NCBI RefSeq assembly: GCF_947623445.1
Contig: NC_135241.1
Location: forward strand, 24,058,501-24,122,500
Direction of reading: 5' to 3'
DNA: 64,000 bases
Source of the DNA: Clavelina lepadiformis
Lineage: Eukaryota; Chordata; Ascidiacea; Aplousobranchia; Clavelinidae
Both the position numbers and the translations under genes were made by a program. Of this stretch, positions 31,012 to 63,200 are shown piece by piece. Within the stretch, counting starts at the first letter, position 1; every line of letters starts with the position of its first letter. The notes below the pieces were generated by a model. That model worked only from the letters and a program-made list of their open reading frames with translations. It was not told the origin of the DNA and ran no database searches.

Positions 31012-32703
31012 ATGGAAAAGGACCCACCCTGGGCCCCACTTGCTATTATGTTGTCTATGTACGGGAGGTCTATAACAAATAAGTTGTTGTTTAAATATCC
31101 GTTTGAAGCTGGAAGACACAGCCAGTCGTCGCTGCGCTCGTACAAACAGTTGACATCATCGACGTACCATCTGAACCAATCCAATTCGACAACAAATGAA
31201 GAAGATGAAGACGAATGCTGTGAAAGTATCAGGGATGAAGCTGAACAATATCTTTCTTTCTCCGACAAACTCCTCGCCCAGGTTACCAGTCCTGCCAACA
31301 CAGTTTGCGGTCAGAAATTTGACGTGAAAATAAATGGGCTACGCTTCGTTGGTTTTCCACTTATGCTGGAACACAGCAATATTGAAACTCAAGATGCGCA
31401 TTTGACAGCTTCACTCGCTGTTCCAGAGCTGTCGGCTCCAGATACAGTGCCCGCACAAATTGAAGATCATAGTGTCAGTAGTGGGATAACAGTGACATCT
31501 TACAACGTTGTATTTGTACTTCGAACCGCTGCAGACTACAGTGTGGTCGAAGCCTATCAACAGCTTGCCACAAAACTTGGTGTTGGATTGAGATTTGAAG
31601 AGAAGCAAATGAATTATGTCACAAGCCAATTCAAACTTATGCTGAGCATCCACGAAGATCCTGATATGTCTGAAGAGCAAGTTTACCAGAAGATCTTGGA
31701 ACAAAGCAGTCTAGCTCAAAATCTACGCTATATTTTTGACTTTGTTGAAAGCACTGGTATACTTGACTTGAGTCTGAATGAAAACCTTCGAATCAGTTTC
31801 TGTCTTTTTCATAAAGTTCTTAACAGTGGTATCAAGAATGAATACGGCGGCATTGTGGATATAAAAAGCATAGAGCAATGTTTAAACCAAATTCAGCCTT
31901 ACCATGGCTTACTCGTCTACGACCACAAAAATGTCTGGGATTCTCTCACGGACTACTGCTCCATGTCCATCGTAAAATTTTTGAATGTCTATAATCCAAC
32001 CAAGTCACTACAGCTAATGTCAACAGATGCCGACATTGCAATGAGACATGTTTTCACCATTGCGCGACACTTGGTGCTGTGGGGTAAAGCTTGTGTTATT
32101 TACCCACTTTGCGAAACAAATGTGTATTTTTTAGCACCTACAGCTTCATTAAACTGCCGCTCCAAATATATAAAACTATTCAGTGACAAATTTAATCTGA
32201 ACTTGACTGAAGTTCTGAATTACTTTTCAACCCCAGTGCGTCTTGGTGATTATCAGTCGCCTACTGGCGCATTTTTCGGAAATGAAAAGAAATTGGTTGA
32301 GATTGTGATATGGATGCTGCAACATAGATTCCTGGTCCAACATCAAACGTACGTTTACTTTCTTCCTGTGCAAGATAGATTTGGTAAACCTGAACAAGAA
32401 CTGAAAAAAGTCTTACTTGAACGACTGAAGACTGTTTCGCCCGGTAAAGTGGAACACCGCCATCTCCCTCATTACTGCAGAGAAGTTTTTCAATCTGTCC
32501 CTGCATCAAGAGACTCTGAAGATTTGACGTTGTTTTTAAGACTTTTGAAATATTTCGATGGGAAGCATCACCTGGAAGAAATGATGTATCGGGAAAACAT
32601 GGTCCGACACGAGCTCGTAACAATTTTGGAAAAATTTCAGTCATTACTGCTGACTTGTGACAGAGAAGACGAAATTGCTGCAGCATTTTGCATGCCTACA
32701 TAG
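31012..32703 (+). CDS. NPRL3: NPRL3, GATOR1 complex subunit, single-exon reading frame, 563 aa
   Basis: One open frame carries the whole protein. The N terminus includes NKLLFKYPFEAG, matching the vertebrate NKLLFRYPF start of the longin-like domain. CGQKFDVKINGLRFVGFPLM and YNVVFVLRTAADYSV follow. The middle has IRPYHALLL-like IQPYHGLLVY, and DADIAMRHVFTIARHLVLWG with IYPLCETNVYFL. The C-terminal winged-helix region ends RLLKYFDGKHHLEEMMYREN, close to human RGRHHLEEIMYNEN. Length is close to the human 569 aa. Known role: with NPRL2 and DEPDC5 it forms GATOR1 on the lysosome, which acts on RagA/B as a GTPase activator and represses mTORC1 when amino acids are scarce. Vertebrate NPRL3 has many introns; here none is seen, so either introns were lost or the copy arose by retroposition. 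AATAAA signals are at 33004 and 33054. Confidence 0.95.
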   Translation: MEKDPPWAPLAIMLSMYGRSITNKLLFKYPFEAGRHSQSSLRSYKQLTSSTYHLNQSNSTTNEEDEDECCESIRDEAEQYLSFSDKLLAQVTSPANTVCGQKFDVKINGLRFVGFPLMLEHSNIETQDAHLTASLAVPELSAPDTVPAQIEDHSVSSGITVTSYNVVFVLRTAADYSVVEAYQQLATKLGVGLRFEEKQMNYVTSQFKLMLSIHEDPDMSEEQVYQKILEQSSLAQNLRYIFDFVESTGILDLSLNENLRISFCLFHKVLNSGIKNEYGGIVDIKSIEQCLNQIQPYHGLLVYDHKNVWDSLTDYCSMSIVKFLNVYNPTKSLQLMSTDADIAMRHVFTIARHLVLWGKACVIYPLCETNVYFLAPTASLNCRSKYIKLFSDKFNLNLTEVLNYFSTPVRLGDYQSPTGAFFGNEKKLVEIVIWMLQHRFLVQHQTYVYFLPVQDRFGKPEQELKKVLLERLKTVSPGKVEHRHLPHYCREVFQSVPASRDSEDLTLFLRLLKYFDGKHHLEEMMYRENMVRHELVTILEKFQSLLLTCDREDEIAAAFCMPT

Positions 32704-40900: not shown

Positions 40901-42819
40901 ATATATTTAAGTACAAGAGTTTTTAGCCGTTGCTATGTATCATATTATTCTCCACATCATTTACATTTATTTTTACAACAATTTTCGTTTATTAAAGGGA
41001 TTATCAGCCAGCCGAATGTGTTGTACGAGTGCCATCTGGCGTCTGATGTTACATTTATTGGAATTTTGGTCACAAATGTTGTCACAAAATCAGCAGCCTT
41101 TGAATACTTAGGTACATTCAAAATCGATTTTAGATGTGCTTTGCATATAACTGTTACAATTTTTTTTCAAATATCACCTCTTTGCTTGTACAAAATCAAT
41201 GTGTTTGTGTGTTTATTGTTAGTTTCAATAGAAAACGCCGTGAAAGGAATTATTTAATCAATCACTTCCCCACCCCAGCCAGTCGATCTATATACAGGCT
41301 ACTTTAATCTCTACCCATTATAGTCCTCTGATTAAATTTACACTAAAGTATATAATGCGGCTGCAATTTTAGTGACAAGAACATGTCAATCGATTTGCAA
41401 ACGCCAACCTATATTCTTACATTATTGATCATTCGAAGTGCATGTTTTGCTGTATTTTCTAAGTATGCGTTATTACATTATTACCACACCACTTTTCAAA
41501 CACTCTATTTAGTAAATAAACCATTCAAATTTGTTGCACAAAACATTTCATACTTCAATGAAAAAGGGGATCTTTACAAAACAAGTAACTTGCATTTACT
41601 TTTATTTTGGATTTTAAGCTCACATTGAAGTGATACCATTTTATGGCAGGTGCTTCACCGACTTTGTGGGAGTGGCTCGCATTGTCTTGGATTGTTGGAA
41701 AATGGGTTCAGGAAATTGAAGAATTCTTTAAACGCGGTCCGAGAAGGTATTTTGGTGATTGGTGGAACTACAATGATCTACTGCAACTGGTATTCTTCAC
41801 TATATGCATTATATTGAGGTAATATTTACCGAGCAGAGCATTGCAAAGGTAAATATCGATCACTGGTTCAATATCCAGCCATAGCAACGTAAGATGCTGT
41901 TAAGCAAGACAAATAAATCCTTTCAGCAAACTAAAAATATAATTCACATACAAATATCCTTAAGGCAAACATATCAATATGCATTTTGCATTTCATCAGG
42001 GTAATTGATTACGTGAAGTATGGCAATGTACCGGCAGATGAAAGAATCTTTCGACCCGGTTGGAGCGCATCTGAACCAAGACTAATCTCATCAGGGATAA
42101 TGGCTTGCGTTTATGTTTTCGTGTCGCTCAGGTTACTCGGCCTGATCAAAATCCATCGAGTCCTCGGTCCACTTCAGGTTTCCTTGGCTCGGATGTTGAT
42201 CGATGTCATCCAGTTTCTACTCATCTTTGCTCTGGTCATCTTTCCATTTAGTCTCGGGATGACCGAAATTTTCTGGTATCATGAAACCCCTCAATGGAAG
42301 GATACCTTCTGTGGACAAACTGAGAACGGCACATCCTGCAGCAGTGACGTCTATTTCGGAAATTTGCCAAAATCGCTTTTGGATCTTTTCTGGACGCTTT
42401 TTGGCTACGTCGACCCCTACCAAATTGCCTTGGAGCAGCAAACTTTTGTCCAAGTGGTTGGAATTGCTCTCCTGGCCATTTACCACGTGATCGCCATCAT
42501 CATTATACTCAACATGCTCATTGCGATGATGAGTAAGTCGTACGAGGACACCAGCGAGAAGGAGGAAAAGGAATGGAAGTTTTCTCGGACTGTTACCTGG
42601 ATCCACTTCATACGACGGGATGTCACTCGTCCGCCCCCCATGAATCTTATCCCTTCGCCTTGGTTAGTTGCAAAATATGCAAAAAAAATTCGTGAACGTT
42701 TTCAAAAAGATACTAATAATAGAAATATTAATGATAATAGCAACGAAATTCAAAACCCAAATGAAAGTGTAGCAGGCAGCAAAACAAAGGAAGACCAACA
42801 TGAGAGCTCTCCTTGTTGA
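37984..42819 (+). CDS. TRPC-type cation channel, 12 exons, about 739 aa
   Basis: Exons: 37984-38017, 38433-38526, 38876-38939, 39050-39163 (3' end uncertain), 39307-39507, 39666-39770, 40049-40192, 40399-40611, 40683-40830, 40998-41111, 41650-41818, 42000-42819. The N terminus is poly-Asn/Ser, then ankyrin-like segments (FTIGTAVMVMAATLEKHNLL), a linker with SPAYIRM, and six membrane segments. The S4-S5 region is IHRVLGPLQVSLARM, the pore LFWTLFGYVDPYQ, S6 AIIIILNMLIAMMSKSYE, followed by the TRP box EWKFSR and the RPPPMNLIPSPW motif of TRPC channels. Family role: non-selective calcium-permeable channel gated downstream of phospholipase C. The ankyrin exons 3-4 are much less similar to the minus-strand paralogue than the rest. 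Two AATAAA hexamers are at 42915 and 43027. Confidence 0.9.
38661..38716 (+). repeat. Local tandem repeat in TRPC intron 2
   Basis: Five or so imperfect units of TGTTTGACCAT, some shortened to TTTGACAT or TTTGACCAT. Confidence 0.7.
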
Positions 42820-45430: not shown

Positions 45431-47713
45431 ATGGCTTCAAAAGAAGCAAAATCTCGTCAAACTTTTGAATTCGTGTTTCTACCTCGTCAAGAAACGTCAA
45501 CATCCGTTCCAACTGATCTTGATCCAGACGCCTCTGATGGCAAAAGCACTGCAGTCCACTGTAAATATTTAGAATACAAAATACAAATTAAAATAAATTT
45601 AAAGTTTTTTATGTTATAATTTATAAGTAAGCACAATATAGGTTTACAGAAATTTTTTCAAAGATAACATTTTTTAAACATAATATTACTTTAAGAAAAC
45701 TTTTCACAACAAAATGATCCTTTTCATATCGTAGCCTGAAGTGGCATAACATAGAAACTTATATAATTTGTATAATTAATAGTTATAATTTTTTTAAACA
45801 GATGAAAATATTTTTCCCAACTTTATTGTCGAGCATTCACCAAAACAAGTAGACGTAAATAAAGATGATGAGGAAAAAGATTTATTGTTGGTTTTAAAGG
45901 TTAGTGGATTAGCATGTGCACAACCATCATACGCTATACATGTACATTATATACAGTACGTAAGAGGAAATCGAAATCATTTTTGCCCTGCTCGCAAATG
46001 TAAATAAAAATGTGAACACTCTCTTGTGCTTTATAGAGTAAGCTTGAAGACTTGTACGAGCTTCCAAGACCTTGGGAAAACGAAGGACAAAGGATTCTTA
46101 ATCTCTTATACGAAGTAAAATTATTATAGCGGATTTAATTTTATTTGTATGCGCACCTTAGGCTTGTCTTGCATCCTTACATCAAGTTAATTGTAGCTTA
46201 AAGAGGTTTTGTGTGCTTTTAACATGTTTTCAAATAGCATCATCGTAAATAGTTTGTCTGAATCACCCCATATACTGTAACTCAAATAACGCATGTTCAT
46301 GAAATAGGTCGATTTAAAGTATACTGACCAGGAAATTATGTTCATTGGGGAGACCATAGTGGAATGTAAATTTATTGAAGTTTGCAATCGTATCTGGGAC
46401 TTCTGTCACAGCACAAAGGATAAAGAATTTAACTTTTTGACATGTAAAGCATACCAACTGGTAGGTGCAGTGAAAATTACTTGGTTAATTATCTTATATA
46501 TAGGTTATACATTTTATTTACAGATTCATCCATGATTTACTTTGTGATTTTTGTTTAACCTACTTTGCAAAATAAATAAATGATCTTAATTCTCTTGGAC
46601 TTGTGTGTAAATATACAACCCTTGACCAACAATTTTGAGTTAGATGTAATTACATTTTTGTGCTCTTTTGCAACAATTAATAAAGTTTAGACTTATTTTG
46701 TTTCAGATGAAATCAGTTCTATTCAGCTTTTCAGATAAGTATCCCAGCTTGGCGAAAGCAGCTTACCAGAACAAAACTTTGATTGAACGCTTCATGAGTG
46801 AATTTGACTTACCAGAGCTCAGTGTTGATAATTTAACAGATGACAACCACATTGAAGCAGTGGAGGTACTAGAAGCATGGTGTAGTAGCCCGTTTAAGTT
46901 ATTAAAATGTTTTAAGGGTTAATATTTTTCCTAAGTGCACCATGTGTGTATTGCTGAACATGGCAAGAAACTTTCACCTTATCATTTCTCTAATACGACG
47001 CGATGGAGGATTGAATAAGATTCTTAACTATTATCAACATGAAGATTTAGAATCGATTATTGATGGGATCATTGCTATTGATCTCCGTATTGCTGAAGAG
47101 GAAAAGGAAATGAGATTGGCAGGTGTGCGACTAAAGGTTATGCGAAAAATAATTGCTTGTTTAATGTTAACAATTTGTAGTTAACTAAATATTATCAAGC
47201 TACTGCTCTAAATCTTATACGTAAATTCGCCTTAAGTGATTTTTTATTTTATCCTATAATTGTTTCAAGCACACCGCTCGCTATATCAGTACGTCTTGAA
47301 CATTGATCCATCCAGAATGTTATGCAGTGATGGCACTTTGAACTAAGTGCATAAGACTTATAAAAGCTCGCCAAAATCTATAAATGGCAATCTTATCCAA
47401 TTTATTATATTAATAATGGAAATAATCAAAACACGTCGGTTCCTTTTTGTATTTTACACATTAAAAAACAGTGGTATAGAAAAACGTTACATTTGGTGCA
47501 TAGCAAGGGCTTGCATTAAAACAGGATTAAAACATTAATTAGAAATTGGACAGGTCCAGCGTTTTAGACACACAAACTGATGTAATATTAACAGGTGGGA
47601 GTCATTCTGGTGATGATGAAACTAAAAGTGAATATGGAAGCGAAGATGCAAAGTTGATAAAGAAAATCAAGGAATCTATTTATTTGCAGTTTGATCACAA
47701 TATTTTTAAATAA
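45431..47713 (+). CDS. TIR-cluster gene 1, first ARM block (gene 1a), 7 exons
   Basis: Exons: 45431-45560, 45802-45899, 46037-46114, 46308-46460, 46707-46865, 46936-47122, 47595-47713. Read alone they give a 307-aa protein ending at TAA 47711. After a variable N terminus the exons match, one to one, the ARM/HEAT-like exons of gene 2: LEDLYELPRPWENEGQRIL, FIEVCNRIWDFCHSTKDKEF, PSLAKAAYQNKTLIERFMSE, and LIRRDGGLNKILNYYQ. Exon 7 is an acidic linker (HSGDDETKSEYGSEDAKL) equivalent to the acidic segment that precedes the first ARM exon in the other copies. Its expected phase-0 donor, after KKIK at 47671, reads AAG-GAATCT rather than AAG-GT. So either gene 1a ends here as an ARM-only protein, or it continues into 1b through an unusual junction. 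Exon 2 shows the same acidic feature (VNKDDEEKDL). Confidence 0.7.
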
Positions 47714-47818
47714 TCATGTCTTATGACTTTGTGACTTTTGATATAACACCAAAGCTGTTCAAACACACAGCATAAACTATATTTAATTATTACTTGCCAA
47801 TTTTGTATTTAATAACAG

Positions 47819-50800
47819 GATTTACTACAAAATCTGAACGCTCTTTCCGAACCTTGGGGTAGTACTGGGGAAAATAGTTTGTATGTTCTGTTCCAGGTAA
47901 AGTGAATTTATCAAACTTCGCTTAATTCTGTAATGTTTATTGTTTATTATTTCTTGTTAACTGTAACTTAGTATTAAAATGTTAGAATTTTGGTTAATTT
48001 CATGACTTAGCCTTTCCCCAAGTATCTAATAAGAATTTATGTTTCGAAAAACCTGAATCTCTTAATTGTAAATCTATAAAGTGCTTGTACAAAATTATCG
48101 TTGTTATGAGATTGAACCTTTAATGTCCATACCTTTATTTTATTTACCGATTTTATACATACTGTATATTGATGTATTACCAGTTGAAAGGAAATAAATT
48201 ACCCGTAATTATTTCTATTGGTGAGTTGATGGTGGAGCATAAATTTATCGATGTCTGTGTTCGTATCTGGGATTTCTGTCACAACACAAAGAACAAAGAA
48301 TTTATGTTTCTCTCTTGCGAAGCATACAGATATGTAACATATGGCTTATAACGTTTTAGTTTTATTTTTAGTTTAATTTAATTTTGTAATTACAGTTTTA
48401 TATGTGAAACTAAAAACGCAGTAAATCTAAGCAAAGCATTATTTCTTTTCTGTATTTAAGCAATATCTGTTTAATTTGTGGTATATTTGTTACCCGGCGC
48501 AAGTCATAACTGTTTATTCATTTAACTTGTCCTTCAAAACAGGGTTCATTTTATTATGCTGGTCTGTTTTGCTCTTTGATGTATCGCTTTTTTGATGATT
48601 GCTCCAACGATGTTAATTTGATACATTTATTTAATTTTTTTGTATTGGAATCTTTCTTAAACATTGGATAAATTTAGATTTATTTTGTTTCAGATGAAAT
48701 CGGTTTTATTGGTATTTTCTGATAAATGTCCCAATTTAGCCAAAGCAGCATATGAGAACAAAATCTTCATTGAGCGCTGCATGAGTGAATTTGACTCATC
48801 AAAGCTGTCAGTCAACCAGTTAACAAATAACAAGCACATTGAAGCACTTCATGTAAAATCAGCAAAACATTGTTATTTTTAAAACTTTGTAATTTAGTTT
48901 AAATGCATTAATATTTTCTACAAGGTAACCCTGTCCATTCTGCTCAATATGCTGAGACATTTGCATGCTGTAAGTTACCTAATACGGTGCAATGGAGGAT
49001 TGGCGAAGTTTCTTAAGTATTATGAACATGACAACCTGCTGCTGAAAACTTCTGTCATCATCACTGTAGCACATTGCATTAATGACGAAGAAAGTGATAA
49101 AATTTTGGCAGGTACACGATCAGACTACTTGTGACAAATCTGATACTATAAAAGTGATTTTTGGCTTTAGTTATTATTATTATTATATTTTTACTTATTA
49201 CTTTTACGTTTGTTACTGGAGAATGTAAAAGTATTAAGGTATTGGCACGTTTGTTAAAAAACAAATTTAAACGTGTGCGTTTGAACATTAAACGTAATCA
49301 CAATGCTTAATAAGGAACTGATGTGATTGCTTTTATTGCTGAGCAATTTAAGTCTATCTTGGATCATCCCTTGCATCAATATTCTAACCTGGATACAAAG
49401 TTTTATACTTCTGCGATAGAGTTGGTCATAGGTTTAGACAAACTGGCCGCTAATGAAAATAACAAAGTGAGTTATGCATCATAGATTGCATGTGTGTTTA
49501 TATGAGGAAGTATTGTGATTTTATAACCAGTAATAATAAGACTCTGACATTGTACACACTATTTTCGTATTCTTAGAAAACAATTGTTGACTTGAATGTT
49601 CTTCCGTTGCTGAAAAGGATGCTTGCAACGTTAAAATCTGACCAAATGCGGGCAGCTTCTCATTGTATCTGGACCCTCTCCTTTCTTCCAGCTAACAAAG
49701 ACAACATACGAGAGGTCAGGTTTAGTTTCAAATAGACCTACAATTACCAATGGTTTTCGTGGGTTGTGATAAAACTAAACTTTTCGTTTTTGAGTTTTAC
49801 TGTTTAATTTCATTGATCTATGTGGATTGGTATTTACAATGTCGAGTTGTATTGTTTTATCCATCTTCATTTTGCTTCATATTTTTTTGTTTTTTTACAC
49901 TTCAACAAATTGCTTTGTAACTTGCTATGGTAAAGGTACTTCATTACAAATAAGGCAAGACCAATTTCTTATTAGGCTGATGGTACAATTGAAAATTTCG
50001 CAAATGTCTATAAGTAGTAAACAAGTTTTATTAGTTATGTTTTTATAGTTTCATAAGTTTGATAGGAATAAGTTTTTAATGGTTTTAGTTTAAATAAGTA
50101 TTTTAGCGTTTTAGTGATTTCTAGGCTATTGCTTTTGAAGTCTTAACCTTCTTGCTAACACGTAAGATGCAAAACGCAAAAATATAAAACCCATAGATTA
50201 GAATTTATTGCTATTTTCATGAATAAGTTTGTCTTTCAAAAATATTTTACTTTGTACCGGAGTCATTCTAAAACCGAATTACTATTTTTCACCTGCTTGT
50301 CTCGTAGGAACCAAACCTTCTTGAAGTTGTGCATCATATTTTATCGAATTCAGAAGTAGATTCTGACACAAAGCGTTCTTGTGATGGAATTATCTTCAAC
50401 ATTGAAAAAGCCCCACAGGTTTTAGAAGAAATAGAAAGAACAACCGGGAAAGACAACCACATCATGATAAGTTATCAGTGGAATAAACAACCAACAATGC
50501 TCAAGGTAGGTTTGATCTATTGGGTATGTTTGATAACATCAATTTGTCTAAGTTATAACTTACACCTCCTTAATACTTAAAGTTAGACTATAACATCTCA
50601 ATATGATTTTGATGGAATCTTTTATGATATAGTGTTACGGTGCTAAGTCCACGTATTCGTGAACAATATCAATAAATTATACCAGTCTGATTACATATGA
50701 TTTACGTAACGAAAAAAACATCAAGGTATCTCGAAAGCGAAGCTTTGTTTTATAAAATGTAGAAAGCTAACAAACTTTCAAGTTATTAAGAGGAATTGGA

Positions 50801-52799
50801 ATGTAAATCATTTTCATTTTTTTATAGTTGCGGGATTGCTTAAATATCAATGGATTTAAAACCTGGGTTGACGTTGATAAAATGCAAGGCTCTATCCTGG
50901 AAGAGATGGCACACGCAGTAGAAGATGCTGGTGTGATTGTGATTGCCATGACTGAAGATTATAAGAAGAGCAACGCATGCAGAACTGGTAGGTTGCTTAT
51001 TGTGCTTTTTTCGTGTTTGTGGATCAAAGTTAAATTAACGACAAATAGATGAAAATAATTTTTGTCATTTTTAGTCCGCTTTTACCGTTTTGTTGTTATT
51101 AGTCTTGTCAGTCTCTAATTAGCATTTAGATTTCAAATTTACAGATTTATTTTTGCTTTTGCAGAAGCTGAGTACGCGTACAAACTGAAAAAGCCGATCA
51201 TTCCTCTGCTTCTAGAGTCAGGTTATAATCCGGATGGATGGTTGGGTGCATTGCTTGGTACAAAGCTGTATGTTGATTTAAGCAATGAATATGATTGCCT
51301 AGGGAAATTCCCTGATGTGATAAAGATGATACAGACACAAATAAGCAAAGAGCAAAGCTTGTACAAAATTCCAGTTTCTTTAACTGGTAAGTTGTATTAT
51401 GACATGAATTAATTATGGAAGTAACGTGCGAAAACTTGTGAAAAATGCACGTTAGTTAGTATACAGTTATACACCAACAATTTCTTCCTGGGTAGAATTT
51501 GGTGTTTTAAGTGTAGTTATTATCACTTTTCCAAACGTTGTTTAGCATAACTTTCTCTAAAATAAATTTTAATTTTGACTTCTATGTCACATTTTTAGTG
51601 ATAAATGCGCCCAAAACCAAAACGTCCGACGACCAATCACAGAACGCTAAACCCCTCAAGTCGTGGAAGTCATATGACGTCAAAATTTGGGCGGAGAAAA
51701 ACAAAATGGGTTCGTAATTTTGTTTATTGTTAGCCAGAAAGATGTTAAGCCGCAAAAAGTTCAAACGCACAAGAAACATCATCTCAATGTGTAGCCCGAT
51801 ACCGTCGTGACAAGATATTTGTCGCTATCGCAATAACTTTTTTTCTGCTTAGTTTTGCGGTTGTTATGCAGTAGTGCCATCCACGCACTAGGTTTATGAT
51901 TGCTTGTTGTTTGTTGCGTGTTATCATCACATTTTTAGCAATCTCGCTACCCCCTTCCTCGGGCTATAGCTTCTTTGTGAGCATTTGTTTTAACTACGCG
52001 CTGATGATGTAGTTTTGTCAAGCTAGGAAATATGGGTAAAGTTAGTTCGACTTTTGTGTGTAGAAGACGTCCTCTATGCTTTATCGATCTGCCCGTGGTT
52101 CAAGTTCTTTTTTTAATGCTGAGTAGTAATATTTTGTTGCGGCTTTTAATATTGATCCTAATTTTTTTAACGGTCGAGTGTGAGGTATAAAAGGAAGCAG
52201 CATCGGTCAAGCGGTCATTATATTGAAAAAAAAAAGCTGGCAGTATTGGCGGCAAGGAACGTTCGATTACACTGTTAGGGTACAAGGCAAGGAAAGTTAT
52301 TCGGGTTTATGAGAAGTCGAAATTCATCATAAACATCACTATTTCTTAGCGTGGTTGATTAATACATAACTTAGGTAACGTGTGTTCAGTATCGCTTGTG
52401 GTAGTATTTGCGTTAGTCTAAATTGTCCATTCTGGTAGCAATTAGCAAGACTTAGCATTTTTAAACTACCGAAGTAAAACTATTTTGCCTTCTTATTCCA
52501 GCGATGATAGAATTTTACTGCTTGCAAAACATTTTCAATCAATTAATTACCTGTGAGCTCAAATATTAACTATTTTTAGTTAATATTTCAAGTCTTCAAA
52601 AACTTTCATTTTGCTTTGATATTCAGCCGACATTGAAATTCTCGTTTCTGGCTTCGACGGAGTTGGACTTTTGCAACTTTATCAGCTACTGAAGAGATGC
52701 CCTGAGATTTATTACACCGCTCTTAGAAACGATTACCGTCTGGAATGGTTGCAAGTATTTCATCTAACCGAAGCACTGGAGACTTTAAACAGGTCATAA
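47819..52799 (+). CDS. TIR-cluster gene 1b: ARM repeats, TIR domain, SAM-like domain
   Basis: Exons: 47819-47896, 48184-48333, 48694-48852, 48925-49111, 49315-49466, 49577-49714, 50308-50505, 50828-50987, 51165-51386, 51599-51709, 52627-52799; 575 codons from the first listed base, all phases closing. No start codon of its own is evident, so it is probably the downstream part of a transcript with gene 1a or an unseen 5' exon. ARM repeats end AASHCIWTLSFLPANKDN. The TIR domain begins HIMISYQWNKQPTMLKLRD and runs through WVDVDKMQGSILEEM, VIVIAMTEDYKKSNACRTEA and KPIIPLLLESGY. The Glu after CRT sits where plant TIR NADases have their catalytic Glu. The C terminus (WKSYDVKIWAEKNKM...GVGLLQLYQLLKRCPE) is SAM-like. 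Family inference: NAD-consuming or signalling TIR adaptor in innate immunity. Confidence 0.85.
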
Positions 52800-53156
52800 T
52801 TTTGATGCTCTTGCCACTCTTTTTACGTGATGTTTTGGCAAATGCATTTCAACCTTAGACTTGATGAAATTTACGAGATGCAGTCGATGTATTTACGTCA
52901 CTCGTGATTGTGTTGTCTTGGACTTCGGCGATAAATTTGAAAATTCGTGTTCAGCTATTTTTAGCTTTCATCCACAAGCAATTTGTGTTCTGTTTTCGTT
53001 TGATTGCATAAGTTGCGGAATTTATGCGTTGTGTTATTCTACATTAATTGCATGAAACATCATAGGCTCATGTCATGATAACTTTCACAACTGGCTTGAC
53101 AATATATTTGATACCATGTTTTTTGATAGTTTCTTGGTTATAGTTAAAAAATGGTT

Positions 53157-53565
53157 TGTAGTTGCAAGATTATTCGAACAAAAATTAATGTGATGTCTGA
53201 AGTTATGCTAGATTGAAAGTTCTATGCTGGGAGATATGGCACAGGGAATTGGAGTTGCTTGTGTAATTGTAATTGCGATGTCAAAATGATATCTACTCAT
53301 ATAGGACTAGTACATCTGTTTTTGTCTGATAGACACATTTGTGGGTTGAAATGTTTGAATTAACTTGAACAAGAATGCTTACTGATGAAGAGTTATACTT
53401 GGCTTGAGTTGTCAATACCATTTTTGCATAACTGTTCCTGCAAATGATACAAACAACAGGTTTTAAGATAATATAACTAATCTTGGTATTTTGAAGTATT
53501 TATCTTTAGTATTACCGAAGTTGAGTACGCTTACAAGTTTCAAAAACCGTTTTCATATGATTAAA
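53157..53565 (+). pseudogene. TIR-exon pseudogene between the two TIR genes
   Basis: 53157-53300 matches the second TIR exon of genes 1 and 2 at DNA level. It keeps an acceptor-like TTTGTAG, then GTTGCAAGATTATTCGAAC, then GGGAGATATGGCACAGG coding MLGDMAQGIGVACVIVIAM before a stop. Part of the WxDVDKM region is scrambled. 53512-53562 matches the next exon: EVEYAYKFQKPFS then a stop. ARM and SAM exons are not recognisable. It is a remnant of a third gene copy, or of a partial duplication. Confidence 0.85.
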
Positions 53566-54328
53566 GCAGTAAACTATGCCAGTCACAAAACGTTCATTAA
53601 TACATCAACTTGCCACTACAGTTTCAACTCTGTAGTTATTGCTGGTTTTACTCAACCGTACAATTGAACATATTTTTGATTATCGAAATAAATTAGAAGC
53701 GGTGTTGAAACATTTGTAAGACGAATCATTTATCTTAAAAATGATATTCATTAAGACATGTCCAAAGCAGTGGTACAACGAACATTAGGAAATAACTTGT
53801 AAACAAATCACATGCTGTAAGACGTATCTGCAGGTGATTCAGTTGTGTGTGTTGTTATACGTAACAGGCTCGACGTGCTTTGCAAATCGGAAACAGGGTT
53901 AAGTGAATTTGAAGCAGAATGTACAGTACAGTAAGCGTGCACTCCTAAAGTAACGGTAATTTAGCTTAATTTTTGTAATATCAGAAAAAAAGATATTTTA
54001 TTTCGGTGTGGAAAAAGCTTAGGGTGTGCTTGGTGAATATTTGCTGCATCAGAATCTCAGCAAAAACGTTAGCGGAAAGATTAAACGGATTGCTGCGTGG
54101 TGACAGTTAGATCCATTGTTCCAATGTAGTTTCCGTCCAAATCAAAATGCAGAAGTTTTGATCGAGTAACGCAGTGAAACGTTAACGAATGTGATAAAAT
54201 ACTTTTTTTATCCAACTCCCAGTAGCTAATAACACTCAAAAGATTCAGATGAGCGCCAACGGTTACTGAAAATACTAAAAATAACAAGAAACTTTTAGGT
54301 CAGCTCAAAGTCACTGGAATAATTGAAA

Positions 54329-57300
54329 ATGCTAAAAACAGGCCATAAAACCGCAAGTGAAAGAAATAAAGTTTGGATGGCTGCACTGCGGCAATTTAGA
54401 AGTAAGAATTGCTTTACTATGGAAGCCTCAGAAATCTTTTTATCCGCTCAGTTCATCAGTTATATTGATCAAGTAATGAATTGTCTTGCAGATGACGACG
54501 AAGTTGGAAGTGAAAATGAAAAACAGATTTTGAACATGGTGAAGGTGAATTATCGCTATGTTGTGAACTATACTGTAGATTAATCTTATCCTCGGAGTAA
54601 AGAGTCTCTTAGCGATTTAATCAACGACAAAGGTTTCTGCCTGCTTACCGACAATTTGTACAGAAAGTCGTGTTGAGATGGGCCCATTTTGTTTATTTTT
54701 AATTTTTTATTATTATTTTTTTGTCTTTATTAAATTTAAAACTTCTAACCATTTGTCGATAAAAACTATCTTGCAAAGAAAATGTTATAATTTGTAGTAA
54801 ACATTCTCTCGATCTACATTTTTTATTGCAGACCGAATTACAAGAATTTTATGAATTGGAATCACCTTGGAATGATACTGGAAAAACCATTTTGAATATT
54901 TTTAAACTCGTAAAACCTTTTAATTTATTCTTGTTTTTCTTTGTACATTTTATACCGATAGTGCATTTAAAGACAAATAACTAGTAATGTTAATTATGGT
55001 GAACTTATGATATACACCCATAGATTATATTAAACAATCAGTGTTATGTTTAACAGATTCTCAGAAAGTTGGCAAAGAAAAATATAATTAATCTCATTGG
55101 GGAGCTAATGGTGGAATATAAATTTTTGGAAGTTTGCGATCGTGTCTGGGATTTTTGTCATACCACAAAAGATAAACAGTTTATGTTTCTCACATGCAGA
55201 GCATACAGTTCGGTAAGCGCTAAACTTCTGTACTACATGTTCAAAAATATAAAGTTATTGTAAAATATTAACAACACTTTTACTGCGTTTTGATCAAAAA
55301 CCAATTTTTTTCATCGATGTTTATGTCTCATTTGCCTTATTCAATATAGTTATTCAGTATTGAGCAAATATTATTTTCATAAAAATAGTATTTTGTTGAC
55401 TAGTAGAGTTGTTTTGTTTCATTTTAGGTTAAACTAGTACTTTGGAACTATTCTAATGAATGTCCCAGCTTAGCCGAAGCAGCTTATCAAAATAAAAGCT
55501 TTCTTGTGCGTTGCATCAGTGAATTGGACTTACCTGAGCTTAGTGTAAACAATCTCATTGACTACAAGAGCTTAATGGCAGTCAAGGTACAATCATTAAC
55601 TATTAAGTCTGTTTTAAAAGTTTAATCATAGCGACTTTCAGTTTATTTTTTTATTTCCACTTTTCATTCCATATTTTTTGCAAAGGCAACAATATCAATA
55701 TTAATGAATATGACAAGGCACTTTCAATCCATAAGTTCACTGATACGATGCAATGGTGGATTGGAGAAGATATTAAAGTATTACAAACATGATGATATTG
55801 GCTTGAAAACGTCGGTTATCATCACGGTCGCACATTGTATCACTGAAAAAGAAAATGACAAAATAATAGCAGGTAATTTATGATTGTACTGCGTGTTACT
55901 GGAAAAACTTTTATATCCAGAACTTGATATGGTATAGTAAGTCCCCAAGATCCGGGATCTGCAAGATTTGTGAGATGTGACCGGATTTTGGTAAAAACAA
56001 ACCAGATTGAGTTGAACAATAACTTTGCCCATCCCTATTAAGTTGCTCACTATGTCTGGTTATTTTTGTTTGTAGTTTGTTGATAAATCGGACAATTATC
56101 ATTTTACACATTTAATACAATTTCAATTCTATGAAGGATCAGACGTGATCCTATTCATTACCGAACAACTCAGAAGAGCTTTGCAGTCTCCTTCGTACCA
56201 GTGCTACTCTGCAATCGAGTTGGTAACGGGTCTAGACAAACTGGCTGCCAACGAATCTAACAAGGTTTGTTGTACTGTTTATAACATTCGTACGGTATTT
56301 GAAACCAATTGATGAAAACTTTTATTTTCTTGCTTCTTTTGTGTCAACATATTAGTTGGCAGTAAGTTCCAAAGTTTGAAAGCAATAGGAATTCCAGCAA
56401 CAAATTTACCCAATGCATGTTTCAGTTTATTTACATATTCTATATTTTGAATCATATACGTCTGGAGAAACTGACTAAGACATGCTTTTTAAGGTCGACG
56501 TAGCTAACATTTAAGCCATTGACAGAGTTCATTGAACGATAAAATGATAAACTGATAAGTAATCAATTTGAAGGACGTTAGCGCCACATTAAGCACCATA
56601 ATGTGCGTAGATAATGTTAAATATGAGGCTAAATGGATTTTCAAAGTTAAGCATAATGCTCGATAAGGTAAGAATAAATAAGGCTTAATCTATAAACCAC
56701 TGTTATCATCATTACTTTTCTTTTCTTTGTAGAAATCCATTGTTGACTTAAATGTACTTCCATTGTTAAAAAAAATGCTTAATCCCTCCTCTTCATCGGA
56801 CAGAGTCCAAGCAGCATCAAGTTGCATTTGGACTCTCTCATTTCTTGAAGACAATAAGAACAAAATATCTCAGGTCAACAGGCTATTTCTACAATAATAA
56901 TATTTTTCATATCAAGGTTGTTAAGTTTTCTTGTTAGGTAACCTTGATTTCATCAATGTGAATAACTTTTTGAATTACTTTTAAAGAAAGTCTTCTTTAA
57001 AAGTTTTATAACGAAATGTAGAAATTAAATCTCACAATTACCTTTCATAAATTGATCATATCCACAATCCATCAAAACTCGTGATTCGGACATTTTATAG
57101 GAACGAGGCCTTCTCGAAGCTGTTCATCGTATTTTGTCGGATTCAAAAATAAAATTTAAGACTAGAAGCTTTTGTGAAGGAATTACCTTTAACATTGAAA
57201 GAGCACAGCCAATTTCAGAAGAAATTCAAAGTAAAACGGGAAAGGACAAACACATCATGATAAGTTATCAATGGAACAACCAACCAATAATATTAAAGGT

Positions 57301-59201
57301 AAATACGATTTATTACTTTAAATATTTCTACGGAGTTTTGTTTTTTTATTTATCTTAAAGATTTTTGTAAAACTCTTTTATGCAAAAAAGCAGGAAAAAA
57401 ACTATCAAGAAAAAAAATATTTTAGCATGTAAGACGATAAAATCAAAAACTTAGATACTTTTTAGGTTTAAAGTAAACAAGAATTAAACTTACTTTTAGC
57501 TGCGAGATTATTTGAATCAAAATGGGCTTAAGACTTGGATAGACGTTGACAAAATGCAAGGCTCTATCCTGGAGGATATGGCACACGCAGTAGAAGATGC
57601 TGGTGTGATTGTGATTGCCATGACTGAAGATTATAAGAATAGCAACTCATGCAGAACTGGTAGAAACTTGTGCTTAATGAAACAAACGGTTTAACACTTA
57701 CAAGGCGAAATGTGTGTAAGACCACGTTGCTATTAGAATGTGGCATTATTTATCAGATAAACATTAAAGAAACCATTACTTTTTCGAAAGTGTTCAGAAC
57801 ATACTTTTAAATGATAATAATCTGCACTAGCTGAACGTTTTTGTATGCAACGCGTCAAACGTCAAACGCGTCAAAGTCAACGTCAAAAGCGTCTTGTGCT
57901 CACACTCGACAGTTATCTGATAATAATAATAATGGACCTGCCTTGAACAGGGTTTACTTTGTACAAGAACGTTATGTTTGAATGAAACTTTCAGTGTTCA
58001 TGCAAGAATAAAATATTTTTTTTTTATGATAACCGAAATAAGATAATTGCGATATGGATATACGATTCCTTTTGCAGTGTTCACTTTTATTTTACAGAAG
58101 CTGAGTATGCTTACAAACTTCAGAAGCCGATCATTCCTCTGCTTCTAGAGCCTGGCTACGAGCCAGATGGGTGGTTGGGTGCATTGGTTGGAACACAATT
58201 ATATGTGGATTTGAGCTTAAAACATAGTTTCGAAGCAAAATTCCCTGATGTGTTAAAAATGATCAGGACAAAAATGTTAAAACAAAGGAGTTTGTCTGAA
58301 ATTACTGTAAAAGGTTGGTTGTTTTGCTTGTGTAATTTTTTTGAATGCAAACAGAATGTTTTTGTGTGAAACCTATGCAGCATGCAGTACAACGGTACAA
58401 ACGGTTGCGGTGCTGCATATGCAACGGCGTATAGATATCCAAAAGATAGGTGTACAAATAGTCACTATATGTTATTTGAAACAAGTCACTTTGTCGTGGC
58501 AAACAAATTATTTGGTCGCTTTTGCTGAGTATTACCATTTTTCACATATTTTACAACAACACTAACTTGTGAACGCAATACTCATTAATAGTTAATTGCA
58601 GCCTATAGCTTAAAATTGTAGCAGATAATTTTTAAACAAAGTATGAAAGTAATCTTAAATCTATATCAAGTAAACCTTTTCAGATGTTGATGGGCCCCAA
58701 ACCTGTCCTAATGATGGCAAACCTCAGAATATTGTGTCTTTCAAATCCTGGACCGTACACGAAGTCAAGGAATGGGCAGAGAAGAATGAAATTGGTTTGT
58801 TATTTTATTTTTTTCATTAGGACATTATATCATGTACAATCAAATTAAGTTTTCTGAAACAACTTCCGTTAGGTTTCCCTGTATGTCACACAAACGTGAA
58901 GCTGGTTACTATGAAAACAAAATTTTGAAATATTTTAATGGAATTACCTTGAAAGTTTTAATAAAGTTTTCGAAAGCTCTATTGTTTTCATTTAATCTGA
59001 TCAGAACTAATTTTGTTTTGATGTTCAGTTAACCTTGAAATATTTTCGTCTGGTTTCAATGGTGTGGGACTGTATCAATTCTCGCAATTGTTGAAACGAT
59101 GCCCGGAGATATATTACAACGCTCTTAGAAGTGATTATCATCTAGAATGGTTGGAAATTTTTCTCGTCACCGAAGCTTTGGAGAACTTAAACAATTCATA
59201 A
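54329..59201 (+). CDS. TIR-cluster gene 2: ARM-TIR-SAM protein, 12 exons, 640 aa
   Basis: Exons: 54329-54544, 54832-54909, 55057-55212, 55428-55586, 55686-55872, 56137-56264, 56733-56873, 57101-57298, 57500-57659, 58098-58313, 58684-58794, 59029-59201. Phases close exactly. Residues 1-72: charged N terminus ending in an acidic stretch. About 73-400: ARM/HEAT-like repeats (LIRCNGGLEKILKYYKHDD, IELVTGLDKLAANESNK, AASSCIWTLSFLEDNKN). About 405-530: TIR, with HIMISYQW near 406, WIDVDKMQGSILEDM, and Glu near residue 475 in SCRTEAEYAYKL. About 560-636: SAM-like domain, WTVHEVKEWAEKNEI then GVGLYQFSQLLKRCPE. No signal peptide or membrane segment, so probably cytosolic. Domain types match SARM1 but the order differs (SARM1 is ARM-SAM-SAM-TIR). 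NADase activity is inference. An alternative is a scaffold role without catalysis. Confidence 0.92.
57848..57893 (+). repeat. Short tandem repeat GCGTCAAACGTCAA
   Basis: About four imperfect copies of a CGTCAAA-containing unit in the intron between the two TIR core exons of gene 2. Confidence 0.6.
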
Positions 59202-60272: not shown

Positions 60273-63200
60273 CTAATTTTCAACCAAGCGATTGTTCAAT
60301 AATTCTTTGAACTTGTATCGACGAATCAGGAAACGAGTTAAATCGAAAGACGTTTTCTGGCGCTTTAACACAGATTGAAGTTTTTCTTTGACTAAACTTT
60401 TGTCTTGGGTGAGGTGTGGTTGCCTTGTGCCATCTACTTCGTCCAGGCCACGACCCTGGCTGTTGCCATTGATGAAAAGAGGTTTAAGTCGAAAACACTT
60501 TTTGCAAATTTTCCACAGCAACCACGGATTAGGGATTAGGTTCATTGGCGGAGGTCGAATAAACTCGCGACGGAAAAAGCGGATCCATGTTGTTGTCCGG
60601 TGAAATTTCCATTCCACTTCCTCATTCTCGCTGGTGACTTCGTAGGATTTTGACATCATCGCGATAAGCATGTTGAGCATGATGATGATGGCGACCAAAT
60701 GGTAAACAGCAAGAAGTGCACTTCCGGTCACTTGAGTGAAAGTTTGACTTTTGCTTGAGAGCAGCTGGTACGGATCGATGTACCCGAACAGCGCCCAGAA
60801 CAAGTCGGTAAGTGTTTTCCCCAATCCGCCAAATAGAATAGTCCCACACCCTTCGTCGGTTGTCGTGTTCCTGCTGCATAACATTGCAGCTCCTTCCACG
60901 GTCCCGTGGTGCCAGAACATCTCGCTGAGCCCAAGCCCGAATGCAAATATGACCAGACAGAATATGAAGAGAAATTGAATGACATTGACCGTCATTCTGA
61001 ACAGAGAAACTTGCAAAGGCCCAATAATTCGGTGGATTTTAATCGAACCCAACACTCTCAGAAAGACAAAAATATATGCCCACGCTAGGAGTCCGGAAGA
61101 AACAAGCCTAGGTTCTGTAGTACCCCAGTGAGGTCGCGTTATTCTATCTTCTATTGGCACATGACCACCTCTGCCATGTTCCATGTAATCCACAACCCTG
61201 CAGGAATCATCATAAGGTTCAGGTAAATACAACGTACATGAGATATCTATTTATTCTTTTTGATACGTTCTAGTGGTTTTTATTCTCAACAGTAACGACT
61301 TATGTGAAACATATTAATCATACGTAATAAGCGAATTCTTATTGTGACGTAGGAGCCTGTGCTGTGACTCACAAGTTGATTCTGTCCTTAATCAATAACA
61401 GTACTTCGGTGATCGTCACATTAAAGTCTTTAAGGCAATCAGTATATTTCCCTCTTGGTCCTCGTCTGTTACTGTTTTATTATTAAAAACTTACCTCAAA
61501 ACGATGCATGACGTGAAGAGAGAAAGCTGCAGTACATCGTTGTGATTCCACATATCGCCGATGTAGCTTTTGAAGCCACGATTATAGCATTCCTGACATT
61601 CTTGGACCCATCTACCGAGCACCCAAAGCAGTGCCAGCCATTCAAGTAGAATAGGAGGTGAACCTTTAAAGGAAAAATTTTATCACAATTTCGGAAAAGT
61701 TATAAAATGGTTTTAATCTTCAACAATCAGAATTAAAGAAAGTGATTAAATAGATCTAATTATGATCAGTCCCAAGCAACAATCAGCAGATAACTAAACT
61801 TACCGAGATATTCTGTTGACGTCGATTTAGTGACGATGTTTCCGATTAAAATTCCGATGAACGTAAGATCGGACACAAGATGACACTCGTACAACACAGT
61901 AGGCAATGTGATAAGCACTGAAATATCCAAAAACATGAGCTTGTGAACACCATCATGATAATCAAATTAAATTTGTGGATACAAAAAAAGATACAAACTT
62001 CCAATTCGCGATTTCGGAGCAACAAGATAAAAGAGAGAAAGGAGAGGATATAGGAGACCAATAAACGTTCCGAAGATAGTTCTTTTGAAAAGATTTTCAT
62101 CTCGAAGTGCGGAGAAGTATCTGTATCTTATATAACTCAAGGCAAGCTGAAAGTCATACAAACAATGTAGTCTGATATAAACGACATATTTTGAAATATT
62201 TGGCAGTGTATTTCAGCAATATGCTCAAAGATAAATGTTACAAAGTTATCCTTTATTTACCTGCGAGTGGGGATGAGTTACAAAATTTACTAAACGTAGC
62301 TTGCTAGCGCGCTCTAGCAGTTCCAAGCGAGCGCTCACAACTTTCCTCGAAGTTGGCTCATTTGCAAGTGCCTTAATTGCTGATCGAGCGTCATCAAAAC
62401 ACACGTGATCGTACTCAAACAAAGTGGCGAGCTCTTTCGACGATTGTATCTAAGAAAAGAAAAGTGTTTGTAGTTCGAGAGTGACTATTTCACCGAATGT
62501 AGGTCAAGCAGCCCGTTGGTTGAGGTGGTTAAGAGAATTAGCATGCAAGAAGCTGATTTAAGTTGTATAGGGTTTAATTGAAGTTAGAGGATGATAGGAG
62601 AAAGGGAGAAAGATTTGGATTAGGTTTAGGTGACTATGTTATAACATTAACTTTAGGTTAACAAAAACTGTGAAATAGAACTTCGAACGCACAATTTTTT
62701 CAGGTGCAATAGGAACAGCTTGTTAGTTTCTCCTTTCATTAGTTTGCTAATTCCACCTTTTACAAGCACAGCGATTAAAATCATCAATAAACCAAATTAT
62801 GACTTACTTGGTCGAGCAGTGAGCACATATACTTCTCCACTTGAGCTTCGAGTTTGTGGTAGAAATCACTGTTTTCCTTTTCACGATCAGCATTTTTTTG
62901 TAAAGTTTTAATCTGTTTTACGCAAAACGTCATCGGATTTTGGTGATTTACCTAATTAATACATAAATTGATAATTGCTATTAATAGCTCAAAATTGGAA
63001 GTAGAACGTTGTCGAAAAAAAAGAAAGTTGTAAAATCAAAAGGTAACGCAGAGCTAGTTAAGAAACCTCTAAGCTTAGTCTTTCGTTATATTATTGAAAC
63101 AATTTGTTATATGTTCATTCCAACAAAAGTTTAGAAACCAAATACCTCGCACATCAAAGTAATGTAGGCAGGGCTCGCTTTTGCTTTGCACATCATTTTT

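What the first reader, a model, noticed from the sequence alone, without database searches (positions are those of the whole stretch)
45431..59201. Tandem ARM-TIR-SAM cluster with a conserved putative catalytic Glu
Two large genes encode ARM repeats, a TIR domain and a C-terminal SAM-like domain. These are the domain types of SARM1, but with TIR in the middle. Both keep Glu in the motif CRTEAEYAYKL, three residues after Cys. This is the spacing of the plant TIR NADase box (WCLxEL), although the Trp is replaced by Ala or Ser. The ARM and SAM parts could regulate and oligomerise the TIR, as in SARM1. The cluster therefore may encode a TIR NADase immune or cell-death system of a different architecture. 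Seen: domains, Glu, tandem copies. Inferred: activity and role.
Basis: partly seen in the sequence, partly recalled or inferred. Interest (0 to 1): 0.8.

Follow-up and report, generated by a model that had tools for sequence, protein, structure and literature searches.

The report
Sea squirt ARM-TIR gene family
The window holds two neighbouring sea squirt genes of a small family that joins armadillo repeats to a TIR domain with a conserved glutamate, a set-up that could work as a switchable NAD-cutting alarm enzyme but is untested and lacks a tryptophan recalled from known enzymes of this kind.

Summary
The observation largely holds. The window is chromosome 2 of the ascidian Clavelina lepadiformis (chromosome lengths). 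Gene 1 has an extra ARM cassette and reads as 869 aa if fused (one odd splice donor). TIR and ARM are confirmed; the C-terminal segment is only SAM-like, under every threshold. Seven ARM-to-tail members lie at six places in the genome, without stops, with pairwise dN/dS of 0.14-0.42 where computable. With a 21-TIR profile the best TIR structures are Cat1 and plant TIRs; Glu475 falls on their Glu. Against a simple NADase reading: the motif also occurs in a TLR-like gene of this genome, the Trp four residues before Glu is absent in 21 of 21 aligned TIRs, and the scaffold-type Hydra TRR-2 also matches. Best reading: an ARM-gated, assembly-activated enzymatic TIR, expanded in a tunicate; main rival, a scaffold adaptor. 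Not filed as SARM1 (order, single tail, no specific similarity). ARM-TIR and TIR-SAM proteins are already named in molluscs and amphioxus: a new variant of a known kind.

The parts
45431..52799 (+). Gene 1, 18 exons, 869 aa if fused: ARM cassette 1 - ARM cassette 2 - TIR - C-terminal segment
   Evidence: spliced by hand, phases consistent, one GA donor after 47671
46037..47122 (+). ARM cassette 1 of gene 1 (4 exons), enters in phase 0 and leaves in phase 1
   Evidence: aligned to the cassette of gene 2 without stops
47595..47671 (+). linker exon of gene 1 (phase-1 acceptor, no in-frame ATG by reading); donor reads GA
47819..50460 (+). ARM cassette 2 and following ARM exons of gene 1
50461..51289 (+). 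TIR domain of gene 1 (aa 634-743, two introns inside)
   Evidence: TIR_2 E 3.6e-19; coordinates computed from the exons
50987..51166 (+). split codon of the conserved Glu in gene 1 (G at 50987, AA at 51165-51166)
51599..52799 (+). C-terminal SAM-like segment of gene 1 (2 exons)
   Evidence: SAM not confirmed
54329..59201 (+). Gene 2, 12 exons, 640 aa: ARM - TIR - C-terminal segment
54832..57253 (+). ARM region of gene 2
   Evidence: family profile against Vac8 2.3e-9 and beta-catenin 2.7e-7
57254..58243 (+). TIR domain of gene 2 (aa 407-523, two introns inside)
   Evidence: TIR_2 E 1.3e-20; coordinates computed from the exons
57659..58099 (+). split codon of Glu475 (G at 57659, AA at 58098-58099)
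58684..59201 (+). C-terminal SAM-like segment of gene 2 (2 exons)
   Evidence: SAM not confirmed
53216..53549 (+). relic of a third TIR between the genes (two fragments, 53216-53280 and 53498-53549)
   Evidence: repeat families D7 and D8, sequence read

Best explanation
The two genes belong to a tunicate family of ARM-TIR proteins with a SAM-like tail, probably cytosolic. The most likely mechanism is that the ARM solenoid holds the TIR inactive, an unknown ligand or partner releases it, the tail and TIR contacts assemble several copies, and the assembled TIR cleaves NAD+ (or makes an NAD-derived signal) with Glu475 as catalytic residue, in innate defence or cell death. Shown here: gene structure, ARM and TIR domains, Glu position, family size, purifying selection. 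Inferred: cytosolic place, autoinhibition, assembly, catalysis, product and biological role.
For: TIR_2 matches 7 of 7 members at E <= 1, best 4.6e-22; over the cut-off shown for the two window proteins. Glu at C+3 in 7 of 7, whereas Glu at C+5 is in 6 of 7. C+3 Glu in 21 of 21 aligned TIRs, one of 6 invariant among 74 gap-free columns, and in 39 of 39 ORF matches of other held loci, 33 of them distinct. PDB ranking with the 21-TIR profile: Cat1 4.1e-7, RPS4 3.6e-6, RPP1 1.3e-4, a plant ADP-ribosyl cyclase/hydrolase TIR (7xoz) 2.1e-4; SARM1 0.4; TLR and MyD88 chains 0.19-0.97. Best PADLOC match of the TIR is SAVED5 SAVED_TIR, E 7.7e-8, then ThsB 2.8e-5. Members show no stops or frameshifts in the aligned part; dN/dS 0.14-0.42 in 11 of 21 ARM pairs and 0.14-0.30 in 10 of 21 TIR-tail pairs, the rest having no computable dS.
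Against: Trp at E-4 is absent in 21 of 21 TIRs and in 39 of 39 ORF matches; it is present in the Cat1, RPS4 and RPP1 chains shown and, as I recall, lies at the active site of SARM1 and AbTIR. C-x-x-E also occurs in a TLR-like TIR of this genome. With the family alone, Hydra TRR-2 is the second TIR after Cat1 and no plant TIR passes E 1 in the seven-member search (0.025; single sequence 0.0089); its crystal packing is of the scaffold kind (PMC8635717, passage). In one search a designed repeat protein (8eoz, 2.0e-5) ranks fourth, so E-values there are not clean, and SARM1 and some plant TIRs lie among the TLRs. No structure, expression or activity data. The tail is not a confirmed SAM, so assembly by it is a guess.
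Confidence: 0.45

Rival explanations
1. Scaffold adaptor: the TIR is not an enzyme; the ARM part binds a partner and TIR contacts recruit TLR/MyD88-type signalling proteins. Glu475 is kept for the fold or an interface.
For: Missing Trp at E-4 in 21 of 21; C-x-x-E also in a TLR-like gene; TLR4 and MyD88 reported without NADase activity (PMC7282519, passage); Hydra TRR-2 among the matches; the TLR-type model PF01582 matches 5 of 7 members at E <= 1, best 4.2e-5.
Against: With the 21-TIR profile the best TIR chains are enzymes and TLR/MyD88 chains come at 0.19-0.97; PF01582 is below its cut-off in gene 2 (15.9 against 21.3 bits) and not listed for gene 1 at E <= 1.
Confidence: 0.35
2. 2',3'-cNMP synthetase / nucleic-acid-cleaving TIR of the kind described for plants, using the Cys-Glu pair of helix alpha C.
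For: The Cys three residues before Glu is invariant in 7 of 7, in 20 of 21 TIRs and in 37 of 39 ORF matches; PMC9153377 (passages) names this Cys and Glu for the cNMP activity.
Against: The same Cys is in RPS4 and Cat1, so it does not discriminate; nucleic acid binding was not looked for.
Confidence: 0.1
3. A rearranged true SARM1 (same gene, domains reshuffled).
For: Same domain types if the tail is a SAM.
Against: Order differs; one tail segment instead of two SAMs; family profile finds no SARM1 chain at E <= 1; TIR match to SARM1 only E 0.4-1.5. PMC13142454 (section 5 read) places SARM1 TIRs in a mainly bacterial clade apart from all other animal TIRs.
Confidence: 0.03

Closest known systems
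ARM-TIR proteins of molluscs (oyster PMC4346834; Aplysia PMC9334734, Table 5 count 11; passages)
   Same: armadillo fold plus TIR, function unknown
   Different: only the category is named in the passages I saw; no sequence compared, no C-terminal segment mentioned; here a chordate, with tail
TIR-SAM hybrid of amphioxus (model Brafl1_131196, PMC2575513, passages)
   Same: TIR joined to a SAM in a non-vertebrate chordate, cDNA recovered
   Different: no ARM mentioned in the passages; sequence not compared
SARM1
   Same: ARM, TIR and (perhaps) SAM in one protein
   Different: SARM1 is ARM-SAM-SAM-TIR (PMC8635717, passage); TIR here is central and only weakly similar
Plant TIRs (RPS4, RPP1) and Cat1
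   Same: profile similarity and the aligned Glu
   Different: Trp at E-4 missing here; other partner domains
Uncharacterised eukaryotic TIR clades 3 and 9-13 of the 2026 TIR atlas (PMC13142454, section 5 read)
   Same: uncharacterised TIRs of non-model animals
   Different: membership not tested; no clade sequences were available to me

Membership tests
TIR domain (TIR_2) | score over Pfam cut-off | tested here: met
   74.5 and 69.9 bits against 28 for the window proteins; 7 of 7 members match at E <= 1
Armadillo-repeat proteins | repeat similarity to solved ARM folds | tested here: met
   profile A1: Vac8 2.3e-9, beta-catenin 2.7e-7; single window proteins stay under the Arm cut-off
SAM domain | score over Pfam cut-off or clear PDB match | tested here: not met
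   best SAM_2 0.06 in 1 of 8 tails; 2d8c, a SAM by recall, 0.66 and 0.89, behind chance matches; ETV6 chains (SAM by recall) 0.016 for one tail but by an 11-residue stretch; shuffles not beaten
SARM1 | order ARM-SAM-SAM-TIR | tested here: not met
   ARM - TIR - single tail
SARM1 | TIR closest to SARM1 TIR | tested here: not met
   SARM1 E 0.4 behind Cat1 and plant TIRs
SARM1 | NMN/NAD allosteric site in ARM | not tested
   no SARM1 ARM sequence was aligned
TIR NADases | catalytic Glu in helix alpha C | tested here: met
   alignment with RPS4 and Cat1; sequence only, no structure; that the Cat1 Glu is catalytic is recalled
TIR NADases | Trp four residues before Glu (a feature recalled; present in the Cat1, RPS4 and RPP1 chains) | tested here: not met
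   0 of 21, 0 of 39
TIR NADases | Glu-dependent NAD+ cleavage | not testable with these tools
   bench assay needed
ARM-TIR proteins (molluscs) | ARM plus TIR in one protein | tested here: met
   as a category, common descent not tested

The most novel reading that the evidence does not exclude
A tunicate-expanded, Trp-less enzymatic TIR class with its own chemistry, in which some loci carry two ARM sensor cassettes before one TIR. At two loci (gene 1, and C8b/C8a on chromosome 8) the upstream cassette leaves in phase 1, which fits the linker exon and, by phase, also the shared exon 6, so splicing could swap or double the sensor half; and gene conversion between the tandem genes renews the stretch from the BB-loop region to the Cys before the catalytic Glu.
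Probability: 0.12. Interest if true: 0.7.

Novelty: new variant of a known kind. Interest (0 to 1): 0.45.

Why it matters
A 2026 atlas (PMC13142454, section 5 read) says that whole eukaryotic TIR clades, common in non-model animals, have no characterised member. This family, in a relative of vertebrates, gives compact test objects with a clear candidate residue, and would show whether regulated enzymatic TIRs other than SARM1 operate in chordates. If the Trp-less site is active, it widens what counts as a TIR enzyme; if not, it warns against reading C-x-x-E as NADase.

Tried and rejected
SAM confirmation by Pfam, PDB profile, single-member PDB searches (two tails) and profile comparison with four SAM stretches of the same genome: all below threshold. 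The tandem SAM on chromosome 5 (20.16 Mb) that I suspected as SARM1 lies in an ORF followed by long proline-rich ORFs, with no listed TIR_2 match near: rejected by inspection. A SARM1 orthologue in this genome was not found, but no SARM1 query was used, so its absence is not shown. Bacterial relatives: one scan of genome contigs with the gene 2 TIR matched 15 stretches, none a relative at E <= 1e-3; single-protein patterns reach close relatives only. ARM-cassette tree: 1 of 6 inner branches is well supported, and the order among the seven cassettes other than the two most divergent is unresolved. Paper searches: in the listings and the passages that I opened I saw no ARM-TIR-SAM protein in that order; the library lacks most subscription journals.
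Full report
Identity of the window. The assembly has 209,060,895 bases in 95 contigs and the window is C2:24058501-24122500. Lengths of C2 (26.53), C4 (25.07), C5 (24.62), C6 (20.77), C7 (20.45), C8 (19.51), C9 (15.73), C1 (28.78) and C3 (25.73 Mb) agree with Table 2 of the Clavelina lepadiformis genome paper (PMC10884593, one passage seen) to 0.01 Mb. For Ascidia mentula, another nine-chromosome ascidian (PMC11109543, listing), none of five of these values is in the text.

Gene structure. Gene 2 was spliced by reading the DNA; 12 exons with GT-AG introns give 640 aa from an ATG at 54329 to a TAA ending at 59201. Gene 1 starts at 45431 and runs to 52799 in 18 exons. Its parts share the phases of gene 2, except that it holds a second ARM cassette (46037-47122) and that the donor after 47671 reads GA. 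If that donor is not used, the linker exon runs into a stop, so gene 1 may also be two genes or partly broken. The linker exon at 47595 follows a phase-1 acceptor and has no in-frame ATG by reading. On chromosome 8 the homologous exon of C8a can be read with the same phase-1 acceptor (the alignment script began it further upstream), with no in-frame ATG between the preceding stop and that exon start, and an ARM-only cassette (C8b) with a phase-1 donor lies upstream. The C8b cassette itself has no stop; a longer alignment past its end ran into one. Two loci thus have the same arrangement, which supports a double-ARM gene, but no transcript was seen.

The Glu codon. Glu475 of gene 2 is split by a phase-1 intron (G at 57659, AA at 58098-58099); in gene 1 likewise (50987, 51165-51166).

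The family. A search of the own genome and a spliced-alignment script gave relatives from ARM to tail on C6 (6.70 Mb), C5 (13.24), C8 (1.29), C2 (21.02) and C2 (16.10), besides the window pair: seven in all, without stops or frameshifts in the aligned part. First exons were mostly not recovered, one extra 14-base exon in C8a is probably an artefact of the script, and the last exon of C2:16.10 touches the edge of the fetched piece. C4 (9.77) gave only a C-terminal segment. Identity to gene 2 is 40-63%. dN/dS was 0.14-0.42 in the 11 of 21 ARM pairs and 0.14-0.30 in the 10 of 21 TIR-tail pairs for which dS could be computed; the others are saturated, all of them pairs with one or both of the two most divergent members. 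In a tree of 21 TIRs of this genome the seven form one side of a branch (support 100/98).

Domains. TIR_2 matches 7 of 7 and Arm 6 of 7 at E <= 1. Against the PDB the seven-member profile finds Vac8, beta-catenin, plakoglobin and other armadillo chains, then Cat1 (4.9e-4) and Hydra TRR-2 (0.025); no SARM1 and no SAM chain is among the 42 sequences at E <= 1. The tail alone gives weak SAM hints: 2d8c, the SMS1 SAM by recall (E 0.66, behind nanobodies at 0.54; 0.89, behind Timeless at 0.84), SAM_2 at 0.06 for one of eight tails, and ETV6 chains at 0.016 for one tail but through an 11-residue match. A comparison with four SAM stretches of this genome scored 12.4 against shuffles reaching 17.3. 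I therefore call it SAM-like, unconfirmed.

Is it an enzyme? For: the best TIR chains are Cat1, RPS4, RPP1 and 7xoz, and the Glu aligns with that of Cat1, RPS4 and RPP1; Glu is invariant in 21 of 21 TIRs and one of six invariant columns, and in 39 of 39 ORF matches. PMC9153377 and PMC7282519 (passages) state the role of that Glu in plant TIRs. Against: the residue at E-4 is N, A, S, H, P or Y in 21 of 21, never Trp; the Trp's importance in SARM1 and AbTIR is recalled, and my look in PMC8635717 and PMC10675840 (passages) found no text on it. A TLR-like TIR of the genome has WCQYE (TIR 4.2e-16), so spacing alone proves nothing. In one search Hydra TRR-2 (0.0012) comes before several plant enzymes, a TLR chain (7ylf, 0.19) before SARM1 (0.4), and a designed repeat protein (8eoz, 2.0e-5) fourth; the profile holds 14 TIRs from outside the family. 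With the family alone TRR-2 is the second TIR. I give the enzyme reading 0.45, plus 0.1 for a cNMP-type enzyme, against 0.35 for a scaffold.

Gene conversion. Between genes 1 and 2, in the 37-residue block VDKMQ..SNSCR, 32 of 34 codons for shared residues are identical, against 126 of 211 in the rest of the TIR and tail part (Fisher p 3.1e-5). The block was chosen after seeing the sliding window, so the p value is optimistic, and the block also exceeds the rest in 18 of the 20 other pairs (0.38-0.79), so codon constraint may add to it. The identity stops at the intron border.

What is known. The paper searches (ten, listed under Tried and rejected) led to ARM-TIR as a named class in oyster (PMC4346834, passages) and Aplysia (PMC9334734, passages), and to TIR-SAM and TIR-NACHT hybrids in amphioxus (PMC2575513, passages), whose Table 1 gives only 4 TIR proteins for Ciona. 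The TIR atlas PMC13142454 (abstract and outline, section 5, passages) reports uncharacterised eukaryotic TIR clades. So the kind is known; the order ARM-TIR-tail, the tunicate expansion and the Trp-less motif make it a variant.

Noticed in passing
genome C4:0.70-3.42 Mb and C5:22.49-23.93 Mb; L046: Clustered TIR_2 expansions: 29 and 18 of the 77 exon matches. At L046 the TIR exon (- strand) is followed by a NACHT-like ORF (NACHT 30.9 bits, cut-off 26.7), which suggests TIR-NACHT (NLR-like) genes; one locus checked, same-gene status not shown.
   Followed up: partly
53216-53280 and 53498-53549: Fragments of a third TIR between the two genes, a decayed copy by look.
   Followed up: partly
50868-50988 and 57540-57660: Near-identical stretch of TIR exon 9 in genes 1 and 2, stopping at the intron: likely gene conversion.
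   Followed up: yes
41935-42819 (+) and 60273-61250 (-): Ion_trans channel ORFs (TRP-like by look) lie on both sides of the ARM-TIR cluster.
   Followed up: partly
30994-32703 (+): NPRL3, a GATOR1 subunit: NPR3 4.5e-36 and HTH_NPRL3 1.1e-17.
   Followed up: yes
genome C8:1300457-1301348 (- strand), 5' of the C8a gene: An ARM-only cassette without stops upstream of a full ARM-TIR gene, the same arrangement as gene 1.
   Followed up: partly
L049, L050 (C2:0.53-0.55 Mb): TIR exons near ORFs sharing the motif QWDCGIIGHDD (one variant QWDYGIIGHDN); no Pfam match for the one tested.
   Followed up: partly
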